IMG/VR virus record: IMGVR_UViG_3300020182_002648
Location: 82,810 to 146,809 of that record
DNA from: a virus
DNA: 64,000 nt
Strand: one strand, 5' to 3'
This document shows positions 30,987-38,192 of this stretch, one piece after another (within the stretch, counting starts at the first letter, position 1; each line of letters starts with the position of its first letter). The translations under genes were made by a program, and so were the position numbers. The notes under the pieces are model-generated. The model did no database searches. It had not been told where the DNA came from and worked only from the letters and a program-made list of their open reading frames with translations.

Positions 30987-31015
30987 TTGACTTACACCGG
31001 TGTATACTATATCAT
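30987..31015 (+). promoter_or_regulatory. Sigma70-like promoter, leaderless, for nrdA operon
   Basis: TTGACT (30987-30992), 17-base spacer, TATCAT (31010-31015), 6 bases to the ATG at 31022. Confidence 0.65.
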
Positions 31016-31021
31016 TAGTAT

Positions 31022-31516
31022 ATGCACGAGCAATTATTAGAACTAGCTGACTCTCCACCGGACTTAGAGCAGTACACACCTTACGTTCAATATGGACCAC
31101 CAGTTTTAATTTATGGTGTCCCTATCAAGAATAGCTATGATCATGAGAGGTTGACTCTCAATGAGAGTTTAGAACCCAAAAGATTGAGAGTTGGTACTGA
31201 TTGCTTTTATGGCTTTATATTGCAACCGACACGATTGATGAGCAAGGTGTGTAGTGTTGCAACTAGTGTGCCGATGGATCACCCAGACTGTGTCAATATG
31301 TATAAGAAGAGACTCGCCATGTGTGAATTGACATGTGACAATTGTTGGGCTCACTTGAGTGAAAATATTTTTCCTATTGATGCGAATAATTTACCTCTCT
31401 TAGCTATAAATAGTCGGTACATGCGGATGGCGAACCCCATGCCACTACAATCAACTCGCACCAAACTTCCCTGGTTCACACAACACGCACAAATGAAAAT
31501 TTTTATCCTCAAATAA
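31022..31516 (+). CDS. Cys-rich hypothetical protein, 164 aa
   Basis: Unrecognised. Has a Cys group (CELTCDNCWAH) that could bind zinc. Its stop overlaps the nrdA start (TAATG), so it is translated with and probably linked to ribonucleotide reductase expression. Confidence 0.68.
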   Translation: MHEQLLELADSPPDLEQYTPYVQYGPPVLIYGVPIKNSYDHERLTLNESLEPKRLRVGTDCFYGFILQPTRLMSKVCSVATSVPMDHPDCVNMYKKRLAMCELTCDNCWAHLSENIFPIDANNLPLLAINSRYMRMANPMPLQSTRTKLPWFTQHAQMKIFILK

Positions 31517-33156
31517 TGAACGTAAAGAAACGTAACAACAAAACAGAAGAATTTAACGAACAGAAAATTCGCGCTTGTATCGAGAGATGCTGCGTCGATC
31601 CTGAAGGAAATGTATACCCCGGGGTCACAGCTGATACTATAGTGTTTAATGCTAAGATCAAACTGTATGATGGTATAACAACTCAAGAGATCGATGACAG
31701 TATAGTCAAGAGCGCTCGTAGCATGATTGAGCAAGAGCCTAACTACAAGTTTGTTGCTGCCAAGTTGTTGTTAAACACCATATACAAAGAAGTGTTCAAC
31801 ACTGGTGTTGATGGTGATGCGTTTGAATTACAATATCGTACCAGCTTCATTGTGAATCTCAAGAAACTGGTGAAAGCAGGTATCTTGCACAAAGACATGG
31901 CCAAGTTTGATCTTAACAAGTTGTCGAGTCATTTGAAAATTGAGAGAGACAACAATTTCGAATATTTAGGTATTCAGACTATCTATGATAGATATCTGCA
32001 TCATATTGATGAACAGAAAATGGAGGCTCCTCAGGCATTCTGGATGAGAGTCGCCATGGGACTGGCATTAGGTGAAGCTAAGGAAGATAGAGTCGAGTGG
32101 GCTTTGAAGTTCTATGATCAATTGAGCAGTTTCAATTGGATGAGCAGCACTCCTACATTGTTTAATAGTGGCGGGACGTTCAGTCAGCTGAGCAGTTGTT
32201 TCCTCAACACATTCGAAGACAGTATTGTGGGTATATTTGATGGCTTGTTACAAGAGGCTCTCAAGAACAAATATTCAGGTGGGTTGGGTATGGACATGAC
32301 CAACTTCAGAGCCACAAACAGTTATATCAAGGGTACAAATGGAGAGACACAAGGCGCTGTATACTTCTGGAAGCTGTATGGTGACATGCTCACTGCTGTC
32401 AATCAAGGTGGCAAGAGAAGAGGAGCCGGATGTGCTTACTTAGAGACTTGGCATGCTGATATTGAAGACTTTATTCAATTGCGGAAGAACACAGGAGATG
32501 AACGCAAGCGCGCTCATGATATGAACACAGCTAACTGGATTCCTGATCTGTTTCTCAAATGCGTCAATGAGGACAAGCCATGGTATTTGTTCACACCCAA
32601 TGAGACTCCTGATCTTCATGATTTATATGGTAAGGATTTTGAGAAGAGGTACTATGAGTATGTCAAGAAAGGTAAAGCAGGAGAGCTCAGAGTGTTTAGA
32701 GAGGTTCAAGCTAAGGATCTGTGGAAGAAAATGCTTAGATCTCTATTCGAGACTGGTCATCCATGGATCACTTTCAAAGACTCATGCAATCTGAGAAGCC
32801 CTCAACAACATGCTGGTGTGGTTCACAGCAGTAACCTTTGTGTAGTGGGTGATACAGAGATAGATTGTATCATAGATGGTCGTAACAGTGTTGTACGTAT
32901 GGATGAACTTGTTGATCTACATAACAGTGGTAAACGATGTGAGACAATGTCATATAACGTCGATACACAAGAGTATGAATATAAGCTAATAACTGATGCT
33001 GCTATGACGAACGACAACGCAGAGATCCTAGAGATTGAGGATTGTACCTCCGGTAAGGTCATCAGATGTACTGCTGATCACAAGATATACACAACCAACC
33101 GTGGGTATGTACCTGCCGGAGAGCTAACAGAGGAGGATATTTTAGTAATATCGTAA
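31516..33156 (+). CDS. nrdA: NrdA N-terminal part fused to N-half of a split intein, 546 aa
   Basis: First half of the class I ribonucleotide reductase large subunit, which makes deoxyribonucleotides. Residues 1-441 are extein: an ATP-cone-like start (KRNNKTEEFNEQKIRACIER) then the barrel, ending HSSNL. Residues 442-546 are the N-intein: block A CVVGDTEI and block B RCTADHKIYT with the TxxH motif, ending in a stop. The break falls between the residues equivalent to E. coli Leu438 and catalytic Cys439. The ATG overlaps the preceding stop. Needs trans-splicing with 33979-35205. Confidence 0.92.
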   Translation: MNVKKRNNKTEEFNEQKIRACIERCCVDPEGNVYPGVTADTIVFNAKIKLYDGITTQEIDDSIVKSARSMIEQEPNYKFVAAKLLLNTIYKEVFNTGVDGDAFELQYRTSFIVNLKKLVKAGILHKDMAKFDLNKLSSHLKIERDNNFEYLGIQTIYDRYLHHIDEQKMEAPQAFWMRVAMGLALGEAKEDRVEWALKFYDQLSSFNWMSSTPTLFNSGGTFSQLSSCFLNTFEDSIVGIFDGLLQEALKNKYSGGLGMDMTNFRATNSYIKGTNGETQGAVYFWKLYGDMLTAVNQGGKRRGAGCAYLETWHADIEDFIQLRKNTGDERKRAHDMNTANWIPDLFLKCVNEDKPWYLFTPNETPDLHDLYGKDFEKRYYEYVKKGKAGELRVFREVQAKDLWKKMLRSLFETGHPWITFKDSCNLRSPQQHAGVVHSSNLCVVGDTEIDCIIDGRNSVVRMDELVDLHNSGKRCETMSYNVDTQEYEYKLITDAAMTNDNAEILEIEDCTSGKVIRCTADHKIYTTNRGYVPAGELTEEDILVIS

Positions 33157-33164
33157 AAGTATTC

Positions 33165-33208
33165 AGGGGTATCTCATAAGTAGTTATATGACGCTTAGAG
33201 ATACCCCT
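33165..33208 (+). promoter_or_regulatory. Hairpin around endonuclease start with embedded late promoter
   Basis: Perfect 11-base inverted repeat: AGGGGTATCTC (33165-33175) and GAGATACCCCT (33198-33208). The 22-base loop contains a late box CATAAGTA (33175-33182, its C shared with the stem) and, 5 bases later, the endonuclease ATG at 33188. Transcripts from upstream would fold the start into the hairpin; late transcripts would start inside it and lack the left arm. Confidence 0.75.
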
Positions 33209-33976
33209 AAACACTATGTATATATGCATACAATAACTACAACAAACAAGTCCTATATAGGATACACATCAAAGAGTGTATCTGAGAGGTTGAAGGGTCA
33301 TTATAAGAATGCTTTCATTAATAACCTACAAGCCCATTGGCATAAAGCTTTAAGAAAGCACGGGATGGGAGCAGTTAAGACTAAGTTACTAGCAGAAGCT
33401 GATTCTAGAGAAGAGGGATTGAAACTTGAAATGGAATTTATCGAGAAATTTGATACTTATAAGAATGGTTATAATCAAACACTTGGAGGTACCGGAGGTG
33501 TTACTATAGACAGGGAACGCGATCCAGAGAAGTGGCAAGCATGGTATGACAAGAAGTTAAAACATGTACAAGGAGCAAACAATCCTAGTTATTCTGGATA
33601 CACTGATGACCAGCTGGTCGACATCGCGGTTGGTTTATATTTAGACAATAACAGATTGTTCACGTACGGTATATGGAAGAGACATTGCCAGTCGTCAAAG
33701 ACTCCACAGAGTTTCTCTAAAATGAGATTCAATGGAGAAGGGTTCAGAGGTTTCAAGAGAATGATCAAACTAGAATTGACAAATAGAGGTATTGATTATA
33801 CTGATGATAGTTTTACATACAAGAGAACTGCTGAGCATAATGCCAATTTGAGAAACAACAATATAGGAAAAAAGTGGTTCACAAACGGGACGAAGAGGTT
33901 AATGACATATCAAGATGACCCGCGGGTATCCGGTTGGAAGAACGGAAGGACTTTAAACAAGACAAACACAATTTAA
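33188..33976 (+). CDS. Free-standing GIY-YIG homing endonuclease, 262 aa
   Basis: GIY-YIG nuclease domain in residues 9-100: YVYMHTI and KSYIGYT form the two name strands, Arg in VSERLKGHY and Glu in LKLEMEFIEKFDT are the catalytic pair, and GYNQTLGG completes the fold. The C-terminal half is likely DNA binding, with a KKWFTNGTKR motif common in phage endonucleases. It lies between the two intein halves and probably cuts intein-free nrdA to spread the element. Confidence 0.9.
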   Translation: MTLRDTPKHYVYMHTITTTNKSYIGYTSKSVSERLKGHYKNAFINNLQAHWHKALRKHGMGAVKTKLLAEADSREEGLKLEMEFIEKFDTYKNGYNQTLGGTGGVTIDRERDPEKWQAWYDKKLKHVQGANNPSYSGYTDDQLVDIAVGLYLDNNRLFTYGIWKRHCQSSKTPQSFSKMRFNGEGFRGFKRMIKLELTNRGIDYTDDSFTYKRTAEHNANLRNNNIGKKWFTNGTKRLMTYQDDPRVSGWKNGRTLNKTNTI

Positions 33977-33978
33977 TT

Positions 33979-35205
33979 ATGATAAAAATTACAAAACTTA
34001 AACAAAAGCAACCAGTGTATGATATCACTGTAAAAGATAATCACAATTTCTTCGGAAATAATATACTAGTACACAACTGCACCGAGATCACATTAAACAC
34101 AAAAGCGACTAGCTACACAAAAACTGGCAGAAGTGTCAAGGAGTATGGAGAGACCGCTGTTTGTAATTTAGGTAGTATCAATCTGAAGAATCATTTGATT
34201 GAAGTAGATGGAAAAGTAACGTTAGACTATGACAAGCTGAAGAACACAGTGACTGTTGGTATGAGGATGTTAGATAACGTTATTGATATCAACTTCTATC
34301 CGACTGAAGAGACTCGGAGGAGCAATACTAAGCACAGACCAGTAGGCATGGGTAGCATGGGCTGGCATGATATGTTCTTGTCAATGGGCATTGAATTCGA
34401 TAGCGATGAGGCTGTCAAGTTGTCAAGCGATGTGTATGAATACATTTCATACAATGCTATATCAGCTAGTAACGATCTAGCCAAAGCCAGAGGCAAGTAT
34501 GAATCATTCGAAGGATCAGCCTGGTCACAAGGTATATTACCGATGGATAGTTATCGTGACTTGATGAAGTTACGTACTGTGCGAGCTAGCAGTCGATCCA
34601 AACTCGATTGGGACTCTCTCAGAGCGTCTGTAGTTAAGCATGGCATGCGGAACAGCAACACGATGGCCATAGCACCAACAGCCACGATTAGCTCTATTGT
34701 AGGATCAAGTCCGAGTATCGAGCCATATTACAGTGTGTTGTATGTGTACAGTACATTGAGTGGTGAGTTTACCATGGTCAATGATCACTTCGTCAAGGAC
34801 ATGAAGAAGTTAGGATTATGGTCTCAGAGGCTAATCGATGATGTGAAACGTACAGATGGTGATATCTCCAAGTTGACTGATTGGAAAATTCCAGCAGAGA
34901 TTGTGTCCAAATACCGAACAGCGTTTCAGCAGGATCAGATGAAGATGGTTGAATCTGCTGCTGCAAGGCAAAAGTGGATTGACCAGGGGGTGAGTTTAAA
35001 TCTGTACAATGACAAGTCGAGTCTCAAGTTTTTGAATGATTTGTACATGCATGCATGGGAGAACGGATTGAAGACCACATACTATCTACGCAATCGTGCT
35101 GCCAGTACAATTGAGAAGAGCACAGTTGGGTCAACTCCAGAACCAGAAAATATCACAGCATGTAGTTTGAACAGTGCCCCTGGTGAATGTGAAGCTTGTC
35201 AGTAG
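33979..35205 (+). CDS. nrdA: C-half of split intein fused to NrdA C-terminal part, 408 aa
   Basis: Residues 1-33 are the C-intein: block F VYDITVKDNHNFF and block G NNILVHN, then Cys34 as first extein residue. The extein (375 aa) begins CTEI, giving the reassembled active-site SNLCTE (N437, C439 and E441 equivalents), continues with VCNLGSINL and ends ECEACQ, the C-terminal redox Cys pair. Splicing would give an NrdA of about 816 residues. The start at 33979 is 2 bases after the endonuclease stop; the longer frame from 33934 would add unrelated residues. Confidence 0.92.
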   Translation: MIKITKLKQKQPVYDITVKDNHNFFGNNILVHNCTEITLNTKATSYTKTGRSVKEYGETAVCNLGSINLKNHLIEVDGKVTLDYDKLKNTVTVGMRMLDNVIDINFYPTEETRRSNTKHRPVGMGSMGWHDMFLSMGIEFDSDEAVKLSSDVYEYISYNAISASNDLAKARGKYESFEGSAWSQGILPMDSYRDLMKLRTVRASSRSKLDWDSLRASVVKHGMRNSNTMAIAPTATISSIVGSSPSIEPYYSVLYVYSTLSGEFTMVNDHFVKDMKKLGLWSQRLIDDVKRTDGDISKLTDWKIPAEIVSKYRTAFQQDQMKMVESAAARQKWIDQGVSLNLYNDKSSLKFLNDLYMHAWENGLKTTYYLRNRAASTIEKSTVGSTPEPENITACSLNSAPGECEACQ

Positions 35206-35371
35206 CGTGAGAATAATATTTGCCTGGTTATTATATCAAGTTGGTGACATTATAAGTAGATTGTTACGGTATAGTATGTTCGCGTGGTTATATCCAGTAT
35301 ATAGCAAGTTGATGTTGTGGAGCTCTCATCTCGATAGTAGTGATGCTATATGGCATAAAAAAAATGACTGA
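35189..35371 (+). CDS. Small membrane protein after nrdA, 60 aa
   Basis: Hydrophobic N-terminal half (IIFAWLLYQVGDIISRLL) and FAWLYPVYSKLMLWSSHLD, resembling a small protein often found in T4-like marine phages. The start is uncertain: GTG codons at 35174, 35183, 35189 and 35207 are possible, all near the nrdA stop; 35189 fits the similarity best. Confidence 0.5.
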   Translation: MKLVSSVRIIFAWLLYQVGDIISRLLRYSMFAWLYPVYSKLMLWSSHLDSSDAIWHKKND

Positions 35372-35375
35372 TATG

Positions 35376-35383
35376 TATAAATA
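35376..35383 (+). promoter_or_regulatory. T4-type late promoter box
   Basis: Perfect TATAAATA, 5 bases before the ATG at 35389. Confidence 0.65.
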
Positions 35384-35388
35384 ATAGT

Positions 35389-35541
35389 ATGCCAGTAACA
35401 ACCACGACTACAAGCACTAGACCTGTACTAGAATCATCGCATGCAGGTGCGATGTTATTCGACACAGATACCAATCAACTCATCATATGGGATGGCACTA
35501 TATGGTATGTATTCGAACCAACGGCCACAATAGATCCTTGA
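35389..35541 (+). CDS. Small virion-type protein, 50 aa
   Basis: Thr-rich start (MPVTTTTTSTRPV) then SSHAGAMLFDTDTNQLIIWD and GTIWYVFEP. The GAMLFDTxTNQLxxWDG pattern is common in phage fibre and neck-appendage proteins. The perfect late promoter supports it as a structural gene. Lies 7 bases before the next gene, which carries a similar theme. Confidence 0.62.
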   Translation: MPVTTTTTSTRPVLESSHAGAMLFDTDTNQLIIWDGTIWYVFEPTATIDP

Positions 35542-35548
35542 TTCCATA

Positions 35549-35854
35549 ATGAGTACAAAGATTATAGGAAAGAACGGGTCGATATGGTTAACTGGTAGAT
35601 CTGCATTTGATCTAGATCAAGGAGGAGTCATTACTTTCCCGTACCCGGATATAGTTGATATTGAGAGTGTCATCACCGCTGCAGCAGCAGAGGACGGTAT
35701 AATGGGATTCGGTACCGATACTAAGAACTTGTATATATCAAATAATGGAAGATGGTATAAGTTTGATTCTAGGTGGCATAAATGGAATACTCACGACCTA
35801 GATTGGAATGAGGAGAGCTTTGTTGCGATTGATTCTAATAGCACACCAATATAG
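35549..35854 (+). CDS. Hypothetical virion-type protein, 101 aa
   Basis: Unrecognised; Gly- and Trp-rich beta protein (GIMGFGTDTKNLYISNNGRW) with the same 'value shown as text' pattern as the small protein before it. Probably a minor fibre or decoration protein under the same late promoter. Confidence 0.6.
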   Translation: MSTKIIGKNGSIWLTGRSAFDLDQGGVITFPYPDIVDIESVITAAAAEDGIMGFGTDTKNLYISNNGRWYKFDSRWHKWNTHDLDWNEESFVAIDSNSTPI

Positions 35855-35887
35855 GCTGAATAACTTTCTATAATTAAGTAGTACTTG

Positions 35888-35915
35888 TTGCTATTTATCA
35901 GCAATAATATATACT
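35888..35915 (+). promoter_or_regulatory. Sigma70-like promoter for nrdB
   Basis: TTGCTA (35888-35893), 16-base spacer, TATACT (35910-35915), 12 bases to the ATG at 35928. Confidence 0.6.
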
Positions 35916-35927
35916 AAGTATTGAAAT

Positions 35928-36923
35928 ATGAGTCAAATCTTAGGCAAAGAATCCGCAGGAGTAAATCAAATACTCCCACACAAAAACAAATGGGCTTGGG
36001 ACCTGTATCGTTCTGGAAAGAACAACAATTGGACACCTGAAGAAGTGCCTATGACCAAGGATGTACAGAACTGGAAGAAGAGTGATGTTATCTCTGATAA
36101 TGAAAGACTGCTCATCAAGAGATGTCTAGGGTTTTTTGCTGGTAGTGAGAGTTTGGTAGGTAACAACTTGTTCACATTGTTCAAGTATATAACGGATGCT
36201 GAATGTCGGCAGTACTTGAGCAGGCAGATGTATGAGGAGTGTTTACATAATGATACAATCGTGTATATTTGTGATTCACTTGATCTGGATATTACTGAGG
36301 TATATCAAGCATATGAAAATATTCCTAGCATCAAGGCTAAAGATGATTTTCTCATGAATGTAACAGGTGACTTGGTTAACAATCCAGTTGACACGAGCAC
36401 ACCTGAAGGAGTGAGAGAAGTTATCAAAGCAGCGTTCATATACTGGATTGTATGTGAGGGTACATTTTTCTTCAGCGGATTCGCCATGCTGCTGGCATTA
36501 TCGGACAAGATTCCTGGAATCGCTGAGCAAATTCAATACACATTGAGAGATGAGAGTATACACATCAAGTTTGGCACAATGCTTCTCAACAAGATCAGAG
36601 AACAACATCCAGACGTGTGGGACGCTAAGCTAGATGAAGAGTTGACAGGATATCTCAAGAGTGCTGTAGAGTTGGAGATAAACTACGCTAAAGACGCTCT
36701 CCCCTCAGGGATCCTAGGTTTAAACTCTGACATGTTCGTTGATTACATGCAACATATTGCAAATCGTAGATTGTCCGGATTAGGCATGGATTTCCGGTAT
36801 GAAAAGGACGAGAATCCGTTTCCTTGGTTGAGTGAAGTGATAGATTTGAGCAAACAAAAGAACTTCTTTGAATCAAAGGTTACAGAGTATCAAAACTCTG
36901 GTGCTCTCGACGACGACTTTTAG
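35928..36923 (+). CDS. nrdB: Ribonucleotide reductase small subunit, class Ic-like, 331 aa
   Basis: Ferritin-fold metal subunit that starts the radical used by NrdA. Metal ligands: Glu74 (SESLV, where most class Ia enzymes have Asp), Glu104 and His107 (ECLH), the Glu in CEGTFFFSG, and DESIH. The position of the usual radical Tyr (His107+4) is Ile111; Tyr113 follows. This resembles the Chlamydia-type class Ic enzyme with a Mn/Fe centre. The C-terminus GALDDDF is the NrdA-docking tail. Confidence 0.9.
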   Translation: MSQILGKESAGVNQILPHKNKWAWDLYRSGKNNNWTPEEVPMTKDVQNWKKSDVISDNERLLIKRCLGFFAGSESLVGNNLFTLFKYITDAECRQYLSRQMYEECLHNDTIVYICDSLDLDITEVYQAYENIPSIKAKDDFLMNVTGDLVNNPVDTSTPEGVREVIKAAFIYWIVCEGTFFFSGFAMLLALSDKIPGIAEQIQYTLRDESIHIKFGTMLLNKIREQHPDVWDAKLDEELTGYLKSAVELEINYAKDALPSGILGLNSDMFVDYMQHIANRRLSGLGMDFRYEKDENPFPWLSEVIDLSKQKNFFESKVTEYQNSGALDDDF

Positions 36924-36974: not shown

Positions 36975-38192
36975 ATGATCGAGAAAATAAAGAATATACT
37001 TAAATTTAAAAATGATGTAAGCCTGCCTGACATAGAGGTCAACGAGGTGTCACAGACTTTATCTCAATCCATTGGATGGGGATTAACACAAAACAACATA
37101 CCACGGGCTTGGACAGAGTCTAAGGGCAAAGGAGTTGTCGTGGCTGTGATTGACACAGGCATGCCCATTCATCCAGATATAGGGGACAATGCTATTGAAG
37201 GTAAATCCTTCATACCTGGTGAGAACATATATGACAACCATGGACATCAAACTCATTGCGTTGGTATCATATGTGCCAAGAATAATGAGTTTGGAATGGT
37301 CGGAGTTGCTCCGGAATCTAAATGTGTTTGTATCAAGGGATTGAGCAACAGTGGCAGTGGCAGTTCTAAAGGAATCGCAGATGCACTAGATTATTGTTTG
37401 GAAATCAAGCCGGATATCGTGAGCATGAGTCTAGGTAGTTCCAGAGCAGACCCAGCCATGCATGAGGCTATCAAGCGACTGGTCAAGGCTGGTATAGTTG
37501 TAGTATGCGCCGCTGGCAATAGCGCTGCAGCTGGTGTCAATTATCCTGGAGCATTTCCAGAGACTATAGCTATTGGTTCACATGAAGTTGATGGTAAGCT
37601 GTCATGGTTTAGTAGTGTAGGTACTCAAGTCGATTGGGCTGCACCTGGAGGTAAAATATACAGCACGTACACCAAAGGACGATATGCAGAGCTGAGCGGA
37701 ACTTCAATGGCATGTCCATTTGTAGCTGGTGTTCTAGCTCTATTGATATCTAAATGGAAGAAGGACGGTAGAGAATACACTGTGGATGATGTTTGGTTGT
37801 CGTTACTTTCCAATACTATAGACAAGTTTACACCTGGTGAAGACAATCACTTTGGTAATGGCATCATTGATGTGTTGTCTCTTTTAGATGCTGGGCCGGA
37901 ACCTGAACCAACACCGGAACCTGAACCAACACCGGAACCAACACCGGAACCAACACCGGAACCAACACCGGAACCTGAACCAACACCGGAACCAAAACCC
38001 GGGGTATGGATGAGACAACGGACATGGGTTACTATTGGGTTGTTTTTACTAACCACAATAGGCATACTGTCACTAATAAATCACCACATGTCTATTGACG
38101 TTCTAGAAGAGATCGATTGGGATCAACGACTAGAGGAGGACTTGGAGAGCAGAGGACTAACGGAAGAGCAATGGCGCTCTATGAGGCGTTAA
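36975..38192 (+). CDS. Subtilisin-like protease with Pro-Glu linker and membrane anchor, 405 aa
   Basis: S8 serine protease: Asp60 in AVIDTG, His91 in HGHQTH, oxyanion Asn182 in AAGN and Ser244 in SGTSMACP. No classical signal peptide. Residues about 312-345 are Pro-Glu-Thr repeats (EPTPEPEPTPEP) forming a rigid spacer, then a membrane segment (TIGLFLLTTIGILSLI) and a charged tail. Could process virion or host envelope proteins. The end overlaps the convergent pyrophosphatase gene by 14 bases. Confidence 0.88.
   Translation: MIEKIKNILKFKNDVSLPDIEVNEVSQTLSQSIGWGLTQNNIPRAWTESKGKGVVVAVIDTGMPIHPDIGDNAIEGKSFIPGENIYDNHGHQTHCVGIICAKNNEFGMVGVAPESKCVCIKGLSNSGSGSSKGIADALDYCLEIKPDIVSMSLGSSRADPAMHEAIKRLVKAGIVVVCAAGNSAAAGVNYPGAFPETIAIGSHEVDGKLSWFSSVGTQVDWAAPGGKIYSTYTKGRYAELSGTSMACPFVAGVLALLISKWKKDGREYTVDDVWLSLLSNTIDKFTPGEDNHFGNGIIDVLSLLDAGPEPEPTPEPEPTPEPTPEPTPEPTPEPEPTPEPKPGVWMRQRTWVTIGLFLLTTIGILSLINHHMSIDVLEEIDWDQRLEEDLESRGLTEEQWRSMRR
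37893..37999 (+). repeat. Pro-Glu-Thr codon repeat in subtilase linker
   Basis: Short tandem repeats of GAACCAACACCG-type units encoding EPTP / EPEPTP between the protease domain and the membrane anchor. Confidence 0.8.

What the first reader, a model, noticed from the sequence alone, without database searches (positions are those of the whole stretch)
31516..35205. nrdA broken into two genes by a split intein with a GIY-YIG endonuclease between the halves
Seen: the NrdA frame ends in an N-intein (CVVGDTEI ... CTADHK) with a stop, then a separate GIY-YIG gene, then a C-intein (DITVKDNHNFF, NNILVHN) in frame with the rest of NrdA. Known: 'fractured' phage genes with split inteins and intervening endonuclease genes have been described from marine metagenomes, including an NrdA-type split intein. 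Inference: the two proteins trans-splice at the catalytic Cys (C439 equivalent), so no reductase works without splicing. The GIY-YIG nuclease class makes this a useful comparator and possible new fast split intein.
Basis: partly seen in the sequence, partly recalled or inferred. Interest (0 to 1): 0.9.

Follow-up and report, generated by a model that had tools for sequence, protein, structure and literature searches.

The report
Split-intein nrdA carrying a homing endonuclease
In this phage a DNA-building enzyme is made as two separate proteins that probably stitch themselves together, because a selfish DNA-cutting gene sits in the middle of the enzyme's gene; this is a well-preserved new example of an arrangement already known from other phages.

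Summary
nrdA is cut in two at the codon of the catalytic cysteine (E. coli C439). The first gene ends in a 105-residue N-intein. A GIY-YIG homing endonuclease gene follows, then a gene that starts with a 33-residue C-intein and continues NrdA. All class 1 splicing residues are present; splicing would give 816 residues.

It is not a new kind. A GIY-YIG gene between split-intein halves of a reductase gene is in print (AceL NrdHF). All 13 full-length relatives of this endonuclease that my scan found also sit inside split-intein nrdA genes. Of 80 nrdA loci kept from the N-half scan, 75 are uninterrupted at this site.

What I can add:
1. In four of five (not independent) pairs of relatives, intein and endonuclease are less diverged at silent sites than the flanking nrdA, as homing would leave them.
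2. The endonuclease start codon lies in the most stable of 83 start-codon folds. A late-promoter motif begins 13 nt upstream, as in I-TevI control.
3. In 18 of 19 such loci the second nrdA half starts within -32 to +4 nt of the endonuclease stop.

Splicing, cutting and regulation are inferred, not shown.

The parts
31516..32838 (+). NrdA N-extein (441 aa: ATP-cone, all-alpha domain, first part of the barrel), ending HSSNL
32839..33156 (+). N-intein (105 aa, Cys1, block B TxxH = CTADHK) plus TAA stop
33158..33215 (+). RNA hairpin directly after the N-half stop, with the start codon of the GIY-YIG gene in its top loop (-27.8 kcal/mol, z -5.2; rank 1 of 83 start-codon windows)
33175..33182 (+). 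late-promoter-like motif CATAAGTA, beginning 13 nt 5' of the GIY-YIG ATG, inside the hairpin
33188..33976 (+). GIY-YIG homing endonuclease gene (262 aa; I-TevI-like catalytic domain about 9-93, then a conserved C-terminal part)
33979..34077 (+). C-intein (33 aa, blocks F and G, ends VHN); its ATG lies 2 nt after the endonuclease stop
34078..35205 (+). NrdA C-extein (375 aa) starting with Cys+1, the C439 equivalent
35928..36923 (+). nrdB, the partner small subunit (context)

Best explanation
A composite homing element, a class 1 split intein with a GIY-YIG homing endonuclease gene between its halves, has invaded nrdA at the C439 codon. Proposed steps: the two proteins meet, the intein halves fold together, and splicing joins HSSNL to CTEI, putting the radical cysteine (the +1 residue) in place (inferred). 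The GIY-YIG protein would cut uninterrupted nrdA of co-infecting phages at or near the same site, and repair would copy in intein and endonuclease together (inferred; its footprint is seen in relatives). On transcripts entering from upstream, a hairpin hides the endonuclease start codon. A late promoter inside the hairpin would give transcripts that lack its 5' arm, so the endonuclease would be made late, as for I-TevI (inferred from sequence). The C-half starts 2 nt after the endonuclease stop and is probably translated by coupling to it (inferred).
For: Anatomy and frames. Splicing residues: T78 and H81 are invariant in 9 N-inteins and D15, H32, N33 and Cys+1 in 9 C-inteins; Cys1 is present here. 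Site = C439. Absence in relatives: 17 of the 41 loci of the C-half scan and 75 of the 80 loci kept of 221 in the N-half scan are uninterrupted at this site; the nearest, L002, has exteins 81% and 73% identical. Against L132, exteins are 34%, intein 59%, endonuclease 37% identical. Fixed address: 13 of 13 full-length endonuclease relatives lie between split-intein halves of nrdA, as does the one in KP13-7. Movement as a unit in relatives: in 4 of 5 pairs N-extein pS 0.57-0.71 against N-intein 0.17-0.33 and endonuclease 0.18-0.45; endonuclease dN/dS about 0.08-0.15 in all 5; L140/L141 DNA identity 0.81 and 0.83 in far flanks, 0.94 within 50 nt, 0.95-0.98 in the element. GIY-YIG fold: I-TevI 1mk0, TM 0.84 by target length. 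Control elements. No intron family in the window region.
Against: No splicing, cutting or transcript data. One of five pairs (L137/L140) shows little element-versus-flank contrast, the pairs share members, and some uninterrupted pairs show rises in identity near the site. Over 15 loci the pairwise identities of exteins, intein and endonuclease correlate (r 0.73, 0.88, 0.93; Mantel p 0.0005), so much of the history is shared and not all of it is recent movement. The hairpin is not general: z <= -3.4 in 6 of 17 loci folded, near zero in L132, L135, L137 and L139. CATAAGTA is a variant of the T4 consensus. If the hairpin blocks the endonuclease, a coupled C-half would be short on early transcripts. 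The post-stop region does not resemble the homing site more than shuffles, so no I-TevI-type operator is supported.
Confidence: 0.87

Rival explanations
1. The two NrdA chains work together without being spliced, as in phage Aeh1, and the intein halves are only tails.
For: Aeh1 nrdA-a/mobE/nrdA-b is reported as functional as two chains (PMC3653736 and PMC10448857, passages).
Against: The Aeh1 chains show no intein (by eye) and its first chain runs past C439 (NLCIEIALPT). Here the break is before C439, which is on the second chain behind a complete C-intein, and splicing residues are conserved across 9 divergent loci.
Confidence: 0.06
2. The split nrdA is decaying: the intein or endonuclease is no longer active and the phage uses the host's reductase.
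For: No activity data; reductase genes of some Campylobacter phages are described as degenerating (PMC3653736, passages).
Against: All three frames are open, catalytic positions are kept, the exteins against L002 have nonsynonymous pN 0.13 and 0.20 against synonymous pS 0.80 and 0.84, nrdB is intact, and the record holds only this one match to the C-half.
Confidence: 0.05
3. Assembly or frameshift artefact of a continuous cis-intein with a nested endonuclease (as in Vibrio phage YC).
For: A cis-intein with a continuous frame exists at the same site in Vibrio phage YC and L025.
Against: A second contig, L001, is 99.95% identical over 9,474 bp with the same arrangement. The endonuclease has its own start, promoter motif and hairpin, the C-half its own ATG, and 19 loci share the layout of an ORF of over 200 aa between the halves.
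Confidence: 0.02

Closest known systems
NrdA-2 split intein of the 'fractured genes' (Dassa et al. 2009, doi 10.1093/nar/gkp095; not held, sequence recalled from memory)
   Same: nrdA cut at the same codon by a split intein; L132-L136 and L139, which resemble NrdA-2 as I remember it, carry a relative of this GIY-YIG gene in the same place
   Different: Intein about 59%, endonuclease about 37%, exteins about 34% identical to L132; here an ATP-cone is present, whereas the L132 N-half is a shorter 391-aa ORF (not scanned for an ATP-cone); strong start-codon hairpin here, none in L132
AceL NrdHF split intein (PMC7891396, passages)
   Different: In nrdHF (beta subunit), class 3 intein with Ala at position 1; here nrdA and class 1
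Klebsiella phage KP13-7 nrdA (OP617745.1)
   Same: Split intein with a 39%-identical GIY-YIG gene, and a hairpin (-26.4 kcal/mol, z -7.0) with AATAAATA in the loop
   Different: Insertion one codon later (NLC|C); its nrdA also has a probable group I intron with an HNH ORF and what looks like a second split intein
Yersinia phage vB_YenM_TG1 nrdA (KP202158.1)
   Same: Split intein at the same codon, endonuclease gene between halves, hairpin with TATAAATA in the loop
   Different: The endonuclease is annotated HNH (Pfam HNH only E 0.16), not GIY-YIG
I-TevI and Aeh1 mobE regulation (PMC2988022, section 12 read)
   Same: Hairpin over the translation start of a homing endonuclease plus an adjacent late promoter
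   Different: Here between split-intein halves; the start codon, not a Shine-Dalgarno site, is enclosed; no operator-like homing-site copy found
Phage Aeh1 nrdA-a/mobE/nrdA-b
   Same: nrdA split by an endonuclease gene close to C439
   Different: No intein seen, HNH endonuclease (PMC2988022), break after C439
NrdJ-1 split intein (PDB 8ubs)
   Same: Best solved match of the N-intein, E 3e-17
   Different: By its name from nrdJ (class II RNR); a homolog, not the same element

Membership tests
Class 1 split intein | Cys1, TxxH of block B, Asp of block F, His-Asn of block G, Cys/Ser/Thr+1 | tested here: met
   Cys1 at nt 32839; T78/H81; D15; H32 N33; Cys34 (roles from PMC4031507 passages)
Class 1 split intein | Separate genes with break between blocks B and F | tested here: met
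   Stop after 105 aa, own start for the 33-aa C-intein, 822 nt between
Class 1 split intein | Trans-splicing activity | not testable with these tools
   No experiment possible
Fractured gene (split intein + free-standing endonuclease) | Conserved enzyme gene broken by split intein with an endonuclease ORF between the halves | tested here: met
NrdA-2 split intein | Same insertion codon in nrdA as the published sequence | tested here: inconclusive
   Same codon as L132-L136 and L139, but their identity with NrdA-2 rests on memory; Dassa 2009 not held
GIY-YIG homing endonuclease | GIY-YIG domain with R, E and N catalytic positions | tested here: met
   PF01541 6.1e-6; Y12, R34, E81, N96 invariant in 8 sequences; model matches 1mk0/1ln0. 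Equivalence to I-TevI R27/E75/N90 is recalled
GIY-YIG homing endonuclease | Cuts the insert-free allele and drives its own copying | not testable with these tools
   Indirect only: homing-like footprints in relatives
I-TevI type regulation | Stable RNA structure over the translation start | tested here: met
I-TevI type regulation | Adjacent late promoter whose transcript cannot form the hairpin | tested here: inconclusive
   CATAAGTA at the commonest spacing; transcript start not measured
I-TevI type regulation | Operator resembling the homing site | tested here: not met
   Score 9 against shuffles mean 7.0, p 0.13
Aeh1-type genes in pieces | Split NrdA without intein | tested here: not met
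   Complete intein halves present
Group I intron | Catalytic intron RNA around the endonuclease | tested here: not met
   Window 31000-36000 at E <= 5: two matches, neither an intron and both far below gathering score

The most novel reading that the evidence does not exclude
The parasite gene has built itself into the timing and supply of the host enzyme. The endonuclease has its own late promoter inside a start-codon hairpin that begins right behind the N-intein stop. The essential second half of the reductase is translated by coupling to the endonuclease stop codon. The phage then cannot lose the endonuclease without losing the C-half, and reductase assembly follows endonuclease translation.
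Probability: 0.25. Interest if true: 0.6.

Novelty: new member of a known kind. Interest (0 to 1): 0.42.

Why it matters
It adds an intact, divergent split intein at the radical cysteine of class I ribonucleotide reductase, with uninterrupted relatives as natural homing targets. The set assembled here makes two open questions testable. One is how an endonuclease and a split intein travel together. The other is how a phage expresses both halves of an essential enzyme with a regulated parasite gene between them. The set includes close pairs with homing-like footprints, loci that stay split without an endonuclease, and the same site holding different nucleases.

Tried and rejected
Group I/II intron in the window: no intron match in Rfam. 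Aeh1-type split without intein: rejected. I-TevI-like operator copy of the homing site: 300 shuffles per locus, 21 loci; lowest forward p 0.037 (L136) and 0.050 (L042), no more than chance over 21 loci; window p 0.13; dropped. Absence of a Shine-Dalgarno site as evidence for coupling of the C-half: dropped, because only 4 of 52 ORFs of at least 180 aa have a 4-nt core at -18 to -4 (mechanical ORFs). Sequence search of the endonuclease against solved structures: no match at E <= 1; the fold search found I-TevI. Scan with an alignment of 9 N-inteins: not possible, too divergent; the single N-intein gave only its own virus and one short match. Bacterial genomes: 3 loci, matching C-intein residues only; their contexts were not examined. 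Papers: Dassa 2009 not held; 'NrdA-2' with 'split intein' gave one paper, which calls NrdA-2 identified but not characterised before (passages).

Hairpins of L134, L136, L138 and L143, near or exact copies of folded loci, were not folded.
Full report
WHAT IS THERE. The window is the end of a 146,809-base virus record (positions 82810-146809). At 31516-33156 an ORF encodes 441 residues of NrdA and then 105 residues of an N-intein before a stop. At 33188-33976 lies a 262-residue GIY-YIG protein. At 33979-35205 lies a 33-residue C-intein followed by 375 residues of NrdA. Removing the 1,239 nt between would leave HSSNL|CTEI and a protein of 816 residues. Pfam and NCBIfam recognise both NrdA parts and both intein parts, the intein parts partly below the curated cut-offs. 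nrdB follows at 35928.

THE SITE. The N-half aligns with the 761-residue R1 chains up to residue 440 (439 in two of them), so intein Cys1 stands at position 439 of the unspliced chain. After splicing that position is filled by Cys+1 from the second chain. In uninterrupted relatives the same two peptides are joined.

WILL IT SPLICE? Everything needed for class 1 splicing is present: Cys1, TxxH (T78, H81), Asp of block F, His-Asn of block G, Cys+1. T78 and H81 are invariant among 9 N-inteins, and D15, H32, N33 and Cys+1 among 9 C-inteins from divergent loci (in one search my row for L045 began one residue late and so lacks its Cys1). The best solved match of the N-intein is NrdJ-1 (8ubs, E 3e-17). 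Splicing itself is not shown.

HOW IT GOT THERE. One search (C-half scan) gave 41 loci: L001, the same virus; L002-L018, 17 loci in which the two nrdA parts abut exactly at this site (in 15 of the 17 one open frame of 775 codons or more spans it, L009 and L016 being broken elsewhere); L019, an intein at another nrdA site; L020-L026, nrdA with an intein at this site or the next codon; and L027-L041, which match the C-intein but not NrdA and were not followed. One of the search patterns was in the C-intein, so intein-bearing loci are enriched in that scan. (N-half scan) kept 80 of 221 loci: 75 uninterrupted (72 new plus L009, L010, L018), 2 cut off by contig ends (L085, L103), the window's own virus (L047), and two with inteins, L061 and L090 (the latter is the contig of L019). 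Some contigs are in both scans. Of four uninterrupted relatives' records searched for the endonuclease, three (L002, L007, L100) have no match and one (L104) has a domain-only match, 34% over residues 8-106; these records may be incomplete.

RELATIVES OF THE ENDONUCLEASE. Scanning with the window and KP13-7 proteins (39% identical) gave 48 loci: the window's virus, 13 with full-length matches (L132-L144), and 34 with partial matches (31 GIY-YIG domain, 3 C-terminal part), which I did not examine. All 13 lie between split-intein halves of nrdA. Twelve of the 13 use the same codon and L142 the next one (NLC|C), as do KP13-7 and Campylobacter CC_R7. L137/L138 and L140/L143 are identical in the element, so about 11 are distinct. 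Against L132 the window's exteins are 34%, intein 59%, endonuclease 37% identical. Over all 15 loci, however, pairwise identities correlate (exteins-intein r 0.73, exteins-endonuclease 0.88, intein-endonuclease 0.93; Mantel p 0.0005 each), so intein and endonuclease have largely travelled together and part of the history follows nrdA. The predicted structure (mean pLDDT 72.9; 81-93 in the ten-residue blocks of residues 11-90; below 50 after 228) matches the I-TevI catalytic domain 1mk0 (E 1e-5, TM 0.84 by target length). R34, E81 and N96 are invariant in 8 sequences.

HOMING FOOTPRINT (in relatives, not in the window). N-extein dS / N-intein dS / endonuclease dS were: L132-L133 2.04/0.32/0.41; L132-L139 1.26/0.42/0.51; L132-L135 2.18/0.44/0.68; L140-L141 1.07/0.20/0.20; L137-L140 1.10/0.92/0.74. 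dS above 1 is near saturation; the raw pS tell the same (0.57-0.71 against 0.17-0.33 and 0.18-0.45 in the first four pairs; 0.58, 0.53, 0.47 in the fifth). So four of five pairs, which share members, show an element younger than its surroundings. Endonuclease dN/dS is about 0.08-0.15. In the DNA profile of 11 pairs, by my reading, 7 show clearly higher identity in the element than in the flanks, one (L133/L136) slightly, one (L137/L140) not, and two (L137/L138, L140/L143) are identical or nearly so throughout. In L140/L141 identity is 0.81 far upstream, 0.94 within 50 nt on each side, 0.95-0.98 inside, 0.83 far downstream, which fits copying with short co-conversion. Uninterrupted pairs show no consistent rise at the site, though some pairs do rise.

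CONTROL OF THE ENDONUCLEASE. The segment behind the N-half stop folds into a hairpin of -27.8 kcal/mol (z -5.2) with the GIY-YIG ATG in its top loop. Of 83 start-codon windows of mechanical ORFs of at least 100 aa in the window, this is the most stable; of 12,784 overlapping 81-nt stretches on both strands 36 are as stable or more, some of them over this hairpin itself. Among 17 loci folded, z <= -3.4 in 6 (window, KP13-7, TG1, L140, L141, L142); L144 -2.4, L133 -2.2, L045 -1.5, L019 -1.3; the other seven between -0.6 and +1.9. In TG1, KP13-7 and L019 the loop holds TATAAATA or AATAAATA. In this phage record 22 of 65 NATAAATA and 13 of 32 NATAAGTA sites have a start codon of an ORF of at least 60 aa 11-17 nt from the motif's first base. 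The other 20 one-mismatch variants reach at most 14%; the 20 permutations pool to 125 of 1,158, but two of them, shifted forms that overlap the true motif, reach 22 of 56 and 18 of 64. Spacing 13 is the commonest, 17 of 35 in my count of that list. The endonuclease has CATAAGTA at exactly that spacing. This resembles I-TevI control (PMC2988022, section 12). No operator-like copy of the homing site was found.

TWO OPEN POINTS ON EXPRESSION. In 18 of 19 loci with an ORF of over 200 aa between the halves, the C-half start lies -32 to +4 nt from the end of that ORF's stop; L045 is at +19 (for L042 and L020, with two candidate starts, the one nearer to the stop was counted). This suggests coupled translation, but then early transcripts with the hairpin would make little C-half. 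In the window, KP13-7, TG1 and L019 the main stem begins within about 10 nt of the N-half stop, so a terminating ribosome might open it (inference).

OTHER STATES AT THE SITE. TG1 has an annotated HNH gene. L020 has another ORF without a Pfam match. L021, L022/L023 and L061 are split with no endonuclease-sized ORF between. L025 and Vibrio phage YC have continuous cis-inteins. L019 has a split intein at a second nrdA site, PW|CTFKDA.

KNOWN OR NEW. Fractured genes are published (Dassa 2009, not held; cited in PMC3653736 for 7 nrdA and 2 nrdJ, passages). GIY-YIG in a fractured RNR gene is published (PMC7891396, passages). NrdA-2 is mentioned in PMC7090010 (passages); that L132 is NrdA-2-like rests on my memory of that sequence. 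So this is a new member of a known kind. The homing footprints, the hairpin with late-promoter motif in this setting, and the endonuclease/C-half coupling are what I would add. The listings showed no paper whose title or abstract start is about them, but I read only passages of a few, the library lacks most subscription journals, and Dassa 2009 could not be checked.

Noticed in passing
L042 (OP617745.1, Klebsiella phage KP13-7) 4998-10528: nrdA appears interrupted three times: a probable group I intron (Rfam E 1.6e-9, 43.3 bits, below the gathering score of 50) with an HNH_3 ORF, the split intein with GIY-YIG, and what looks like a second split intein (PGE|C ... SHN|TSSQ) with an ORF between that looks HNH-like by eye but has no Pfam match.
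   Followed up: partly
window and G000 record, e.g. window 51778, 52468, 59202(-), 38701(-), 10353(-): Late-promoter motif NATAA(A/G)TA begins 11-17, most often 13, nt 5' of ORF starts in 35 places, so late transcripts may be nearly leaderless.
   Followed up: partly
window, 52 ORFs of at least 180 aa: Shine-Dalgarno cores are almost absent upstream of starts (4 of 52, mechanical ORFs), which hints at a host or phage that starts translation without them.
   Followed up: no
L061 6626-6713; L022 5804-6001; L021 191-246: nrdA stays split between intein halves although no endonuclease gene is there; possible end state after endonuclease loss.
   Followed up: partly
L142 2848-6034: The N-half of this nrdA also contains a continuous small intein-like insert (SC|CLRPD ... 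THN|SQGG, by eye), and the C-half ORF ends early after 102 aa, perhaps at a further insert.
   Followed up: no
L019 4902-6084: Split intein at another nrdA site (PW|CTFKDA) with an ORF that looks GIY-YIG-like by eye but has no Pfam GIY-YIG match.
   Followed up: partly
window 36975-38192: Protease (phrog_3677) with a long run of EPTP-type repeats and, by eye, a C-terminal membrane-like segment, next to nrdB.
   Followed up: no
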